A stretch of 64,000 nt of DNA from Dermatemys mawii (lineage: Eukaryota > Chordata > Testudines > Dermatemydidae), in the NCBI GenBank assembly GCA_007922305.1, contig ML677374.1, positions 5,249,991 through 5,313,990 of the forward strand. The letters are read 5' to 3'. The notes under the pieces are model-generated. The model saw nothing but the letters and a program-made list of their open reading frames with translations, was not told the origin of the DNA and did no database searches. Both the position numbers and the translations under genes were made by a program. The stretch's first letter is position 1. Each line of letters starts with the position of its first letter. This document shows positions 13,580 to 63,710 of this stretch, piece by piece.

Positions 13580-15240
13580 AATATCAAGCTGTTTCTGTAT
13601 ATCTACATGCTATCATGCAATGTCAGGCCTCTGTACTCCCCCAAGTCGTCTGATAGTCATTTTCATAATACATGACACTCCCTAAATGAGATACATTCCA
13701 AACTTCCACGGAACAGAAGGCCAACAGATGATCTTCTGGCTTTTGACTGTATTCAACTCTCAAAGCTCACTCTCAGTGTAACTGAAAAAAACAAGAAAAG
13801 CTACAAAATGAGCTGGGTTATCTCAGACCTTATTCCAAAGTGAAAAGGTCCCTTCTCCACAGTGGACTGTCAATGAATTATAAGTTCTAGCACTTGCTTC
13901 TCTTATGCTTCTACTTGTATTTCTTTGATCCACGAAAGACTTTCTAAAAGGCTTGACTACAGAGTGAATCAGCATGGCAGCCCCAACTTCTTTTCAGACG
14001 TGCTTGAGATTTATTTTAAACATGCATTCTTGTCCATTCATATGACTACATTAAATGCTTTTCAGGAGGACCCTCCTGGCTACAATATGAATTGTACCGA
14101 AGAGCCATGGTATTTTCTCCTTTTGCAGTATTTTTGCTGGACACTGTAGATTTAATTCCTTCCTGCAAGTACGTGCCCATACATCATATACATATATTAT
14201 ATGAACAAGATTCCATAAAGGATCTGGCCCTCCATTTCTGTATAAAAGAATGATTTAAATGAGGTTCATGGTACTTGTGAATTGATAGCCCTTACTTGGA
14301 CAAAGGGCCCAATAAGTCTGCAGTTCCAATTCCTCCGGATTGGAAGGAGGTAAAGATTGCCTCTGTTTACAGCTGTTGCACTGCATTTTAGCAGAGACGT
14401 TTGGGATCCTACAAAGTTTTTAATTTTCAGCAAGCCTTTGCAGGTCACTTTTAAACAATCCTGGACTTGGCTGTCAGGCTCTCTCATCCCCAGATAAGAG
14501 TTATTTGTGTACTTGCAGCTGCATGGCCAGAAACCATCTGATGGCGTCTATCCTTCTCTAGTACTGGCTTAGCACTTCTAATCGGAAAGCTAATGTATAA
14601 AACTCAAATGTTTTGCTTAGCTTGGAAAGTGTATCTTCTGAATACTAAATCAGGACACAAAGTGGCTTACAACCTATTATATCAAACTTCCAGTGTCACA
14701 AATGATGACATGTTTTGGATGAGACAGCTGCAGCCCATAGTAGGCTCTGAAATACCAACAGTAATTCTAACCTCTATTTACAATTTGACTGTGTGGTTTA
14801 TTCAGGGCAAAAGTGCTTTGAACTTCTAAATAGCTAGGTTGAACAAAATGGAGGAAATTTTCCCTCTGAATTTTCAACAGTTTACAGGCCACTTGTTTTA
14901 GGATTCATGTTTCTTCATTAGCTGCAGAGGAGAGGCTGCCCGAGGACACTGCTTATTAAAGTCTTTTGTTCAATTTACAAATGGAAACAAATAATTGGGA
15001 AGACATTTGCAGAGATGGAAAAAACATGTTTACAAAGCAGAATAAAATACAGACTAAATACATTTGGATGACGCTAGATCAAAACACATGAGCTTCTAAC
15101 ATAGCATAAAGGATTGTCAGCACCAGGATCACCGACCACTATGAGTCATGTTTCTTATAACAATCAAGTCACTTCAAAGGTTTTGGAATGGTTGTATACA
15201 CAGAGATTTTTGAATTTACATCCACCAGTGCCATCACAGG
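13580..15240. other. AT-rich, nothing recognised
   Basis: No reading frame or repeat with a recognisable signature is seen. Short AT runs are present. Several short open frames on both strands have no motif and look like chance. Confidence 0.5.
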
Positions 15241-17584: not shown

Positions 17585-17985
17585 GGGTGGGCTAGCTTTT
17601 TGGCCCGAGTGCCACATCGCGGTTTCAAAATTATATGGCGGACTGGGTAGGGAATGCTATGCCTCGCCCCCATCTGATCCCCTCCCACTTCTTGCCCCCC
17701 TCAGAATACCCAACCCATCTGACCCGACCTGTTCCTTGTCCCCTGACTGCTCCCTCCCGAGACTCCCCCGACCATAATCATCCCCTAGAACTCCACCCCC
17801 TTTCCAACTCCCCCTGCTCCTTGTCTCCTGACCACCCCCCATCCAGAGACTCCCTGCCCCTAACCACCCCCCGGGACCCCACACCCTATTTAAGCCCCCC
17901 TGCTCCTTGTCCCTTGACCACCTCCTCCTGAGACCCCCCACCCTAACTGCCCTCCAGCACCCCACCCCCTACCCAACCCCAAACA
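17585..17985. repeat. C-rich interspersed repeat with internal minisatellite
   Basis: The block starts AAGGGTGGGCTAGCTTTTTG and GCCCGAGTGCCACATCGCGG, then runs into about 300 bp of C-rich sequence made of loosely repeated units of the form CCCCCTGCTCCTTGTCCCCTGAC-like, alternating with CCACCCC and GACTCCC. The first part resembles a common turtle element beginning GGGTGGGCAAACTTTTTGG. Unit length is variable. The open frames on both strands here (17635-17931 and 17657-17965) are a by-product of skewed composition. Confidence 0.6.
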
Positions 17986-22680: not shown

Positions 22681-22682
22681 AA

Positions 22683-22797
22683 TATACATACACATATATA
22701 CACACACACACACACACATATATATATACACACATATATACACACACACACACACATATATATACACACATATATACACACACACACACATATATAT

Positions 22798-22828
<31 letters not shown>

Positions 22829-22851
22829 TCTATACACACACTTTAAAGCAT
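22683..22851. repeat. Compound CA/TA microsatellite
   Basis: Alternating (CA)n and (TA)n blocks cover about 170 bp. The blocks recur as CACACA followed by TATATA with an intervening ACACATATATAC, giving a higher-order period of roughly 40-50 bp repeated about three times. Alternating purine-pyrimidine DNA of this kind can adopt Z-form or slip during replication. The open frames of 70-105 codons on the minus strand here encode Cys-Val and Tyr-Ile repeats and are artefacts. Confidence 0.95.
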
Positions 22852-33904: not shown

Positions 33905-33980
33905 TCATAGAATCAAAGAACTAGAAGGGACCTTGAGAGGTCATCTAGTCCAGTCCCCTGCACTCAAGGCAGGACTAAGT
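33905..33980 (-). mobile_element. CR1 3' end fragment (minus strand)
   Basis: TCATAGAATCAAAGAACTAG, GGACCTTGAGAGGTCATCTA and GTCCAGTCCCCTGCACTCAA form the highly conserved CR1 terminal sequence, which tRNA-derived turtle SINEs also share as their tail. It is read on the minus strand, and only about 75 bp is kept. Confidence 0.75.
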
Positions 33981-38335: not shown

Positions 38336-38929
38336 GGATGAGCAGTTAAGCACATAGCATCAGAAAGCACAGCCTCATATGCCAATGGATTAAATATTGC
38401 AAGCAAACCAATTACAATCAAGCTTATGCTCAATTATTTTGCTTTGTTGGTAGGTAGCCTTATAGAGCTAGCACAGACACAATGGTGATGGGTACAGAAT
38501 AAAGGCTTATATAATTAGAGAGAGATACAGCTAGATACAATAGATATCTACTGTAGACCATATGCAACCTTTCAAATCCAGCATTCTGATTTAGGGTAGA
38601 AAGAGCATTTTGTAACACACATGGACAACAGTTCATAAACCAACCAATCACTCAGTGATGGTTCATTTTGGGATACTAGGCCTCTATAACAACCCCACAC
38701 ACACCCAGAAGTCCCCAGATTCAGCTAAAGCATCTCCATCAGACAACTCACCTGTTCACTGCTATCCGGTAGCTAATTCTCATTCGGGGGCTAATAGGTA
38801 CACAACTTCTTTCTCAGTCATCACAGCTGTGACTCAGAGGTCCAGCTACATAACCTGACTAGTGCAGATGAACCTGTGTGTTCTCCCCATAACGGTCTAT
38901 GACTGCAATGTGATTAACTGTATTTATGA

Positions 38930-39480
38930 TTATTATCATTTGTGCTGCAGTAGTGTCTAGAGGGTCCAATTGGTACCGGGGCCCTATTGTGCTAGGTGCC
39001 GTACATACACATAACAACAGACAGTATCTGCTTCAAAGAATTTATACTGTAATTATACAAAACTGTCAACAAGTAGGAGAAAATAAGCATTATCCTCATC
39101 TGGGGACCTGAGATGCACAGAGATTTGGGAACTAAGAAGCAGAAAGATTCAGCCTTTTTCTAGACCCAGAAGTTAGACCAGTTTGACTTAAATAGATTTT
39201 AAAACCAGTTTAGTTAAACCAGTTTAGTTAAATCAGAACAGAAAGCTATGGCAATTCCTGATCAAATTAATGCTAAACTGCTTTATACTGAACTAACAGT
39301 GTCCATATAACCTTTTGCACCACTGGGTTTAAAATCACACCTAAAGTTAAACCAGTGCAACTTTCTCACATAGATAAACCCTCAGTGACTTGGCCAAGGC
39401 CACATAAGGATTCTGTGGCACAGCCAGCAACAGAACCCCTATTACCCGAGTCTCAGTCCAGTGGCTTGAACACAACTCCA
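38930..39480 (-). mobile_element. MIR-type SINE split by a MITE (minus strand)
   Basis: The left part (38930-39145) reads TGTGCTGCAGTAGTGTCTAG, CTATTGTGCTAGGTGCCGTA, ATCTGGGGACCTGAGATGCA. The right part (39385-39480) continues with AGTGACTTGGCCAAGGCCAC, GAACCCCTATTACCCGAGTC and CAGTCCAGTGGCTTGAACAC. Together they give the normal order of a minus-strand MIR; the break falls where the MITE at 39151-39384 sits. The SINE is therefore the older of the two. Confidence 0.7.
39151..39384. mobile_element. Palindromic MITE nested in a SINE
   Basis: The left end AGCCTTTTTCTAGACCCAGA, followed by AGTTAGACCAGTTTGACTTA, pairs with the right end, whose reverse complement reads CTGAGGGTTTATCTATGTGA followed by AAGTTGCACTGGTTTAACTT. 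Internal repeated units CCAGTTTAGTTAAA occur twice. It is non-coding. Confidence 0.6.
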
Positions 39481-51187: not shown

Positions 51188-51247
51188 GACACACGTACAT
51201 ATGTATATATACTGAATATATAAACACACTAACACATATATATATAG
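51188..51247. repeat. TA/CA-rich low-complexity DNA
   Basis: Short ACACAC and TATATA runs (CATATGTATATATACTGAAT, CACATATATATATAG) directly border the left end of the inverted LTR structure and prevent a clear target-site duplication from being read there. Confidence 0.8.
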
Positions 51248-51471
51248 TGTGATGGGGCAAGGCCGGATGGCTATAGGAAAGTGCTAAAGAATAGATATGT
51301 TAGTCTCAGGCTAAACAAATCCCTGGTACCAATGGAACCTTCTAGAAAGGAGTAGAAACAGCTAGCCTAATTGGGACACCTGAAGCCAATCAGGTACTGG
51401 CTGAAACCAGTTAAAAACCTCCCAGTTAGTCAGGTGGGTGTGGGTGTCAGGAGCTGTGGAAGGAAGTTGTG
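51248..51471 (+). mobile_element. Inverted extra copy of an LTR 5' end (224 bp)
   Basis: This segment starts TGTGATGGGGCAAGGCCGGA and is the reverse complement of 51907-52130 with 222 of 224 identities and no gaps; the differences are at 51264 (partner 52114) and 51460 (partner 51918). It does not continue into the rest of the element on its own strand. It shares its last four bases, TGTG, with the 3' terminus of the minus-strand LTR at 51468-51471. The arrangement suggests a fold-back or template-switch event at a TGTG microhomology. The near-identity points to recent formation or to gene conversion between the arms. Confidence 0.85.
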
Positions 51472-52130
51472 ACAAAGCTCTTTCCTTATCTTTGTGGATC
51501 CTGCGTTTCCTGGCGGATTTTCACTAGCCTCAGAGGCTCACTGTGACCCTCCACGTAGCCCTTCTCTCTCTAGAGACAAGGTCACAGCCTATTGAGCCAC
51601 TTTCATCACAAGCCAGTGAGGAGAAGCTATCCTTCCTGGCACAGTCTCTATTGTCTCCCAATCTCAGAAACTAATTAAGGGAGGCAGAAATGGGGGAGCC
51701 TGGGCCCGCCCTCTACTCTGGGCTCCAGCCCAGGGACCCTAATAGTATTAGCTAAGGTGGCTGACCTTTTATCCACAAAACACAATATAATTCCCTGGGC
51801 TACTTCCCCACAGCAGTCCCCACTTCTTCAAACTCCACTTCACCCTTACCTCAGGGCCTCCTTCCTTGCGTACGATATGTTGTCCACTACTCAGTCTCAC
51901 CAACAGCACAACTTCCTCCCACAGCTCCTGACACCCACACCCACCTGACTAACTGGGAGGTTTTTAACTGGTTTCAGCCAGTACCTGATTGGCTTCAGGT
52001 GTCCCAATTAGGCTAGCTGTTTCTACTCCTTTCTAGAAGGTTCCATTGGTACCAGGGATTTGTTTAGCCTGAGACTAACATATCTATTCTTTAGCACTTT
52101 CCTATAGCCATCCAGCCTTGCCCCATCACA
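51468..52130 (-). mobile_element. Solo-LTR-like element (663 bp, minus strand)
   Basis: Read on the minus strand it begins TGTGATGGGGCAAGGCTGGA and ends AGAGCTTTGTCACA, so it has TG..CA termini and a short TGTGA/TCACA inverted end, as in LTRs of retrotransposons. Interior landmarks on the plus strand include CTCTGGGCTCCAGCCCAGGG and ACCTCAGGGCCTCCTTCCTT. No gag, protease, polymerase or primer-binding site flanks it, so it looks like a solo LTR. I recall a similar turtle LTR of about 0.7-1 kb, possibly Gypsy-like. With the inverted arm it forms a possible 224-bp stem and 435-nt loop. Confidence 0.6.
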
Positions 52131-52179
52131 ATACACACATATAACGATGAGATGGTACAGAAACCCCAAGGGCAGATAA

Positions 52180-57499: not shown

Positions 57500-58258
57500 C
57501 AGAATTATAGAACTGGAAGGGACCACGAGAGGTCATCTAATCTACTAACTAAGTAGTATCTAGACCATTCCTGACAAGTGTTTGTCTAACCTGCTCTTAA
57601 AATCTTCAGTGATGGAAATTTCACAACCTCCCTAGGCAATTTGTTCCAGTGCTTCACCATCCTGATAGTTAAGAAGTTTTTCCTAATGTCAAATTTAAGC
57701 CTCCCCTTGCTACAATTTAAGCCTATTGCTTCTTGTTCTATCCTCAGAGGTTAAGAACAATTTTTCTCTCTCCTCCTTATAACCTTTTATGTATTTGAAA
57801 ATTGTTATGTCCCTTCTCAGTCTTCTCTTTTCCAGACTAAACAAACCCAATCTTTTCAATCTTCCCTTAGAGATCATGTTTTCTAGACCTTTAGTCCAGA
57901 GAAGAGCCACAAAAATGACTCTCTCCAATTTGTCCACATCTTTTCCGAGATGTGGTGCCCAGTACTCCAGTTGAGGCCTAATCAATGTGGAGCAAAGCAG
58001 CAGAATTACTTGTTGTGTCTTGCTTATAACACTCTGGCTAATACATCCCAGAATGATGTTTGAGTGGTTTTTGTTTGTTTGTTTTTTTGCAACAGTGTTA
58101 CACTGTTGACTAATATTTAGCTTGTGGTCCATTACGACCCCCAGATCCTTTTTCACAGTACGCCTTCCTAGGCCATCATTTTCCATTTTGTATGTGTGCA
58201 ATTGATTGTTCCTTCCTAAGTGGAGTATTTTGCATTTATCCTTATTAAATTTCATCCA
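57500..58258 (-). mobile_element. 5'-truncated CR1 LINE (minus strand)
   Basis: The 3' terminal sequence lies at the left (AGAATTATAGAACTGGAAGG, GACCACGAGAGGTCATCTAA), then GATGGAAATTTCACAACCTC, CTAGGCAATTTGTTCCAGTG, and then the C-terminal part of the reverse transcriptase frame. The right edge near 58258 is where the match stops, so only the last roughly 760 bp was inserted. CR1 copies move by target-primed reverse transcription and commonly lack their 5' end. This is the best preserved LINE in the window. Confidence 0.9.
57710..58255 (-). pseudogene. CR1 ORF2 C-terminal fragment (reverse transcriptase end), 181 codons
   Basis: The frame is open for 181 codons and carries the conserved end of the CR1/jockey-clade polymerase: FNKDKCKILHLGR near the start, KKDLGVVMDHKLNISQQC, an ILGCIS stretch, a segment with RPQLEYWAP, and GLFSLEKRRLRRDI near the C-terminus. 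This region follows the catalytic YADD motif, which is missing with all upstream sequence, as are the endonuclease and ORF1. The initiator Met is incidental. A T-rich segment (GTTTGTTTGTTTTTTTGC on the plus strand) has added residues in a K/N-rich spot. It cannot make a working enzyme. Confidence 0.9.
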
Positions 58259-63585: not shown

Positions 63586-63710
63586 AGGCCCTCATACAGC
63601 CAAGTAGGCATTTAAGCTTTTGCTTAACTTTAAGCGTGTGAATAGTTTAATTAAATTCAACAGAACTACTCACATGCTTAAAGTTAAGTATGTGCTTCGC
63701 TGGAACAAGG
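63586..63710. repeat. Palindromic repeat with TTGCTTAACTTTAAGC arms
   Basis: The left arm CTTTTGCTTAACTTTAAGCG, followed by TGTGAATAGT, pairs with the right arm ACTACTCACATGCTTAAAGT, followed by TAAGTATGTGCTTCGCTGG. The core is AT-rich (TTTAATTAAATTCAACAG). It is the best preserved copy of the family at 7275 and 61914. Confidence 0.65.

What the first reader, a model, noticed from the sequence alone, without database searches (positions are those of the whole stretch)
51248..52130. LTR with a 224-bp inverted copy of its own 5' end, arms 222/224 identical
The first 224 bases of a minus-strand LTR-like element are repeated, inverted, beyond its 3' end with two mismatches and no gaps. Every other repeat in the window is strongly decayed, so this near-identity means recent formation, arm-to-arm conversion or some constraint. 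The two parts meet at a four-base TGTG overlap, which fits fold-back synthesis or template switching rather than two independent insertions. A transcript across it would fold into a 224-bp stem with a 435-nt loop and could feed small-RNA pathways.
Basis: partly seen in the sequence, partly recalled or inferred. Interest (0 to 1): 0.75.

Follow-up and report, generated by a model that had tools for sequence, protein, structure and literature searches.

The report
LTR-like repeat with fold-back inverted copy
A lone retroelement end-repeat in what looks like turtle DNA carries, joined to its tail, a near-perfect mirror copy of its own first 224 bases, most simply explained by one DNA strand folding back and copying itself; it is a neat molecular scar with no shown function.

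Summary
Window 51248-51471 is the reverse complement of 51907-52130 at 222 of 224 bases, no gaps, 435 bases between the arms. The core is an LTR-like unit on the minus strand, 52130 to 51468, 663 bp, with TGTGA...TCACA ends. Joined to its 3' end is an inverted copy of its bases 1-224, sharing four bases (51468-51471). Both outer ends of the 883-bp unit are therefore the same LTR start. An overlap of 4 or more occurs at 9 of 620 possible junctions in this LTR. Two independent insertions are unlikely: LTR bases 225-663 of a second copy lie in neither 5-kb flank. One fold-back copying event explains the anatomy. Exact use of both LTR termini suggests an LTR-length cDNA before integration (about 0.4). 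A later round-trip template switch inside a resident LTR (about 0.27) is favoured by the imperfect target duplication and CpG-poor arms. A multi-copy family with both arms (about 0.2) could not be tested: no other copy was reachable. Recency, conversion and small-RNA production are unproven.

The parts
51248..52130 (.). whole 883-bp unit; both outer ends are the same LTR start (TGTGATGGGG / CCCCATCACA)
51468..52130 (-). LTR-like element, 663 bp, TGTGA...TCACA 5-bp inverted termini; TTAAAAA at LTR 164, ATAAAA at 359, CCAAT at 82 and 139; no AATAAA, ATTAAA or TATAWAW
51248..51471 (+). inverted copy of LTR bases 1-224 joined to the LTR 3' end
   Evidence: 222 of 224 identical
51907..52130 (-). 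source arm, LTR bases 1-224
51468..51471 (.). TGTG/CACA four-base overlap at the inner junction, shared by the LTR 3' terminus and the arm
   Evidence: 9 of 620 possible junctions (the real one included) have an overlap of 4 or more
51472..51906 (-). 435-base spacer, the single-copy part of the LTR
51244..51247 (.). left flank ATAG, candidate target duplication with one mismatch
   Evidence: 3 of 4; at least 3 of 4 occurs in 8.9% of position pairs from the 100-base flanks
52131..52134 (.). right flank ATAC, candidate partner of the left ATAG

Best explanation
A single fold-back copying event on an LTR-length strand before integration. The 3' end of an LTR strand (...GTCACA-3') paired through its last four bases with the TGTG at LTR 221-224 of the same strand and was extended back to the strand's 5' end at LTR base 1. 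The 883-base product carries the LTR start at both ends and was then inserted as one unit. Shown: the anatomy, the junction overlap, the use of both termini and the absence of the rest of a second LTR nearby. Inferred: that the template ended at LTR base 1, as a plus-strand fragment begun at the polypurine tract would (recalled retroviral biology, not from a call), and that integrase or end joining inserted the product. No function is shown. Each arm holds the promoter-like motifs pointing inward, so convergent transcription and a hairpin RNA are possible but unproven.
For: Arm ends at LTR base 1 and leaves from LTR base 663. The terminal pair is only one of 333 maximal inverted matches of 5 bp or more in the inferred single-LTR locus with 100-base flanks, and 87 of the 333 are longer than 5 bp, so a random later switch would seldom pick it. 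Overlap of 4 bases, 9 of 620 possible junctions. Fold-back inside single ssDNA molecules followed by capture is shown in yeast: 16% of 342 barcoded inverted insertions from transformed ssDNA carried identical barcodes (PMC11724301, section 20 read). Human fold-back duplications show 2-8 bp inverted microhomology at 13 of 21 sequenced junctions; 3 more lie in homologous repeats and 5 have insertions (PMC3907307, passages).
Against: No perfect target duplication at any length 3-10. With arms 0.9% diverged, a 4-bp duplication of the same age should be intact about 96% of the time, 88% at the upper bound of 3.2%. The arms share a CpG-poor state (0 and 1 CpG in 224 bases; LTR observed/expected 0.16, window 0.19), as an LTR already long resident would, though the source may have been CpG-poor. 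TGTG 221 is not the structurally favoured partner of the 3' CACA: four of the other nine TGTG sites cost less. The LTR 3' end, an LTR-only substrate and integration through two LTR-start ends are all unverified.
Confidence: 0.4

Rival explanations
1. Post-integration round-trip template switch. During replication or repair of a resident LTR, the growing strand jumped between the inverted ends TGTGA/TCACA, copied 220 bases of the opposite strand and returned at TGTG to the point of departure, inserting an inverted copy without loss of sequence.
For: Both switch points have microhomology, 5 bp and 4 bp. An older LTR would explain the imperfect ATAG/ATAC duplication (1 mismatch of 4 has probability 0.29 at 10% divergence) and the CpG-poor arms. 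Template switching inserts inverted copies in great ape genomes (PMC7954356, passages).
Against: 220 copied bases exceeds the maximum of 128 in the great ape gold-standard set (median 12). The exact LTR termini are one of 333 available inverted matches of 5 bp or more, 87 of them longer.
Confidence: 0.27
2. A multi-copy element family in which every copy has both arms; this locus is one ordinary member, and the fold-back happened in the founder.
For: Both outer ends are clean LTR starts, as a mobile unit would have; meeting one in a 64-kb window would be lucky if it were unique in a genome (inference).
Against: No second copy in the window (E 0.01; best residual nhmmer hit E 0.039). No perfect target duplication. 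Otherwise untested.
Confidence: 0.2
3. Two independent head-to-head insertions of the same LTR.
For: LTR elements do nest (PMC6911290, abstract start in a listing).
Against: LTR 225-663 of the plus copy is absent from both 5-kb flanks (nothing at E 1); at 4-6 bp neither part alone has a target duplication (best 4 of 6); 99.1% arm identity and the 4-base overlap would be coincidences.
Confidence: 0.04
4. Autointegration: the processed CA end attacked the element's own LTR at 220/221, giving an inverted joint.
For: Autointegration yields deletion or inversion circles (PMC2644782, passages).
Against: Strand transfer needs no four-base overlap, and the product would be a circle rather than a linear unit with two LTR-start ends (inference).
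Confidence: 0.04
5. Assembly or library artefact, a false palindrome.
For: Long inverted repeats are hard to clone and sequence (PMC4057610, abstract start in a listing); reads were not available.
Against: The copy stops at the LTR terminus and does not run on into the flank, and the arms differ at two transitions.
Confidence: 0.05

Closest known systems
Solo LTR of an endogenous retrovirus or Gypsy-like element
   Same: TG..CA ends, short inverted termini, promoter-like motifs
   Different: has an inverted copy of its own first 224 bases at its 3' end; no AATAAA or ATTAAA; family not identified
Fold-back inverted duplications (PMC3907307, abstract and passages; PMC11724301, abstract and sections 19-20)
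   Same: unduplicated spacer between inverted copies, short inverted microhomology at the junction
   Different: spacer 435 bases against 766-70,466 bp stated in the human study; bounded by LTR termini
Template switch mutations (PMC7954356 and PMC8794818, passages)
   Same: inverted insertion with a nearby source, can make a perfect hairpin in one step
   Different: copied tract 220-224 bases against a maximum of 128 in the great ape gold-standard set
Retroviral autointegration products (PMC2644782, passages)
   Same: LTR end joined to an internal site, inversions among the products
   Different: circular, and integrase joining needs no microhomology (inference)

Membership tests
LTR of a retroelement | TG...CA ends with short inverted termini | tested here: met
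   TGTGA...TCACA on 663 bp
LTR of a retroelement | 4-6 bp target site duplication | tested here: inconclusive
   ATAG/ATAC 3 of 4; no perfect match at 3-10 bp
LTR of a retroelement | promoter and polyadenylation signals | tested here: inconclusive
   TTAAAAA and CCAAT present; AATAAA, ATTAAA and TATAWAW absent
LTR of a retroelement | other copies, also flanking an internal coding region | tested here: inconclusive
Fold-back inverted duplication | inverted copy separated by a unique spacer | tested here: met
   224-base arms, 435-base spacer
Fold-back inverted duplication | inverted microhomology at the junction above chance | tested here: met
   4 bases; 9 of 620 possible junctions reach 4
Template switch mutation in a resident LTR | pre-event orthologous LTR without the inverted arm | not testable with these tools
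   no related genome reached
Nested double insertion | remainder of the interrupted LTR on the other side | tested here: not met
   nothing at E 1 in 5 kb of either flank

The most novel reading that the evidence does not exclude
An LTR-length plus-strand cDNA snapped back on itself at a four-base match, was copied to its 5' end and was integrated as a palindromic mini-element with two LTR-start ends, showing that reverse-transcription by-products consisting of one LTR can enter a germ line as ready-made inverted repeats with two inward-facing promoters.
Probability: 0.3. Interest if true: 0.55.

Novelty: new variant of a known kind. Interest (0 to 1): 0.33.

Why it matters
If the event preceded integration, it is a route by which retroelements seed long hairpins in one step, which could feed double-stranded RNA pathways. 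If it came later, it is an unusually long template-switch insertion with both switch points readable. Either way one orthologue comparison would decide.

Tried and rejected
Relatives were sought and not found: exact patterns in viral contigs and genome contigs, blastn against phages and plasmids, translated open stretches in the protein collection (no candidate shares three words; 432 candidates, none at E 10 or below), sequence strings in papers (0 papers). The DNA collections hold viruses, phages, plasmids and prokaryotes, and the protein search admits only a window of lengths, so the nulls say little about turtles. The protein collection does hold turtle proteins.

Rfam (gathering) and tRNA scans of the window were empty. 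Pfam gave nothing for five window ORFs at 1e-3. A structural preference for TGTG 221 as fold-back site was tested and not found. Nested insertion was rejected. Paper searches for the structure and for turtle LTRs showed capped lists: 20 of 117, 15 of 31, 15 of 3,216, 10 of 35, 10 of 27, 15 of 20, 10 of 11, 20 of 53 and 11 of 11 papers. Among the titles and abstract starts shown I saw none that describes an LTR with an inverted copy of its own start; that is not proof of absence from print. Of papers I saw abstracts, passages or named sections of six, none in whole.

Full report
What is there. Bases 51248-51471 are the reverse complement of 51907-52130 at 222 of 224 positions without gaps; the arms are 435 bases apart. 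Read on the minus strand, the unit starts TGTGATGGGG, runs 663 bases to ...TTTGTCACA at window 51468, and continues with the inverted copy of its own bases 224 to 1, ending ...CCCCATCACA at 51248. The LTR 3' end and the arm share four bases, 51468-51471. The LTR-like part has 5-bp inverted termini TGTGA/TCACA, a TATA-like TTAAAAA at 164, ATAAAA at 359 and CCAAT at 82 and 139, but no AATAAA, ATTAAA or TATAWAW. Calling it an LTR rests on these features; no relative was found.

Borders. The arms end at the LTR terminus. The reverse complement of the left flank and the right flank agree at 6 of the first 10 bases, both being AT/AC-rich, then at 3 of 10. Candidate target duplication: ATAG on the left, ATAC on the right, 3 of 4. 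At least 3 of 4 is met by 8.9% of position pairs from the 100-base flanks, and no length from 3 to 10 matches perfectly. A crocodilian ERV study gives typical lengths of 4 bp for ERV1, 6 for ERV2 and 5 for ERV3 and ERV4, with exceptions (PMC4299795, passages).

Two insertions? If a minus LTR had landed inside a plus LTR, bases 225-663 of the plus copy should lie beyond 52130. An nhmmer search of 5 kb on either side finds nothing at E 1. In the rest of the window only two weak hits appear (38791-38994, E 0.039; 13923-13993, E 0.82), and blastn finds no other copy at E 0.01. At 4-6 bp neither part alone has a target duplication, best 4 of 6.

Junction. With one side fixed at the LTR 3' end, 9 of 620 possible arm ends, the real one included, give an overlap of 4 or more. 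Human fold-back duplications show 2-8 bp at 13 of 21 sequenced junctions (PMC3907307, passages), and inverted double insertions in yeast mutants a median of 6 bp, range 2-11 (PMC11724301 section 19). So the overlap fits fold-back synthesis.

Before or after integration? For before: both LTR termini are used, though they are one of 333 maximal inverted matches of 5 bp or more in the inferred single-LTR locus, 87 of which are longer. A plus-strand fragment that starts at the polypurine tract and ends at the end of U5 would have these ends (recalled biology). For after: the TGTGA termini themselves offer 5 bp of microhomology. The target duplication is imperfect, which for a 4-bp duplication of the same age as arms 0.9% apart has probability about 0.035 (0.116 at the upper bound of 3.2%), against 0.29 at 10% divergence. 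The arms share a nearly CpG-free state (0 and 1 CpG; LTR observed/expected 0.16, rest of window 0.19). Against after: the longest template switch in the great ape gold-standard set copies 128 bases, median 12 (PMC7954356, passages). DNA folding does not single out TGTG 221: enforcing that pairing costs 9.0 kcal/mol, and four of the other nine TGTG sites cost less. I lean to before, weakly.

Age. Two differences in 224 bases give 0.9% (95% 0.1-3.2%), 4.5 My at an assumed 1e-9 per site per year, 0.5-16 My from counting error alone. Conversion between the arms could hide a greater age.

Host and function. A 181-codon ORF at 57710-58255 has 3231 matches, of which 120 were listed: first, second and fourth are from Chelydra, Pelodiscus and Caretta at 63-65% identity, third a crane at 47%. 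So a turtle host is likely. The single strand as RNA folds at -616.6 kcal/mol against -300.8 (sd 9.0) in 20 shuffles, which restates the inverted repeat. Both arms hold the promoter-like motifs (plus arm 51329, 51386, 51411; minus arm 52049, 51992, 51967) facing inward, so convergent transcripts are conceivable. Nothing here shows transcription.

Limits. No other copy of the repeat was reached, and the window's own genome search did not complete (ten tries). The family reading, the orthologous site and read support therefore stay open.

Noticed in passing
window 57710-58255, minus: 181-codon ORF with 63-65% identity to hypothetical or reverse-transcriptase-domain proteins of turtles; no Pfam match at 1e-3. 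Probably a CR1-type LINE fragment (name recalled).
   Followed up: partly
window 63623-63688: 66-base self-complementary stretch, 82%, possibly part of a small DNA transposon (guess).
   Followed up: no
window 17728-17971: Tandem array of an 86-base unit, 2.9 copies, 74% matches, C-rich.
   Followed up: no
window 22682-22841: AT/AC microsatellite of about 160 bases, similar in kind to the AT/AC-rich run around the unit.
   Followed up: no
window 38791-38994, minus: Weak nhmmer match to LTR 61-256, E 0.039, 6.7 bits; perhaps an old relative, perhaps chance.
   Followed up: no
window 33909-33950 and 57501-57542: Direct repeat of 42 bases, 86% identical.
   Followed up: no
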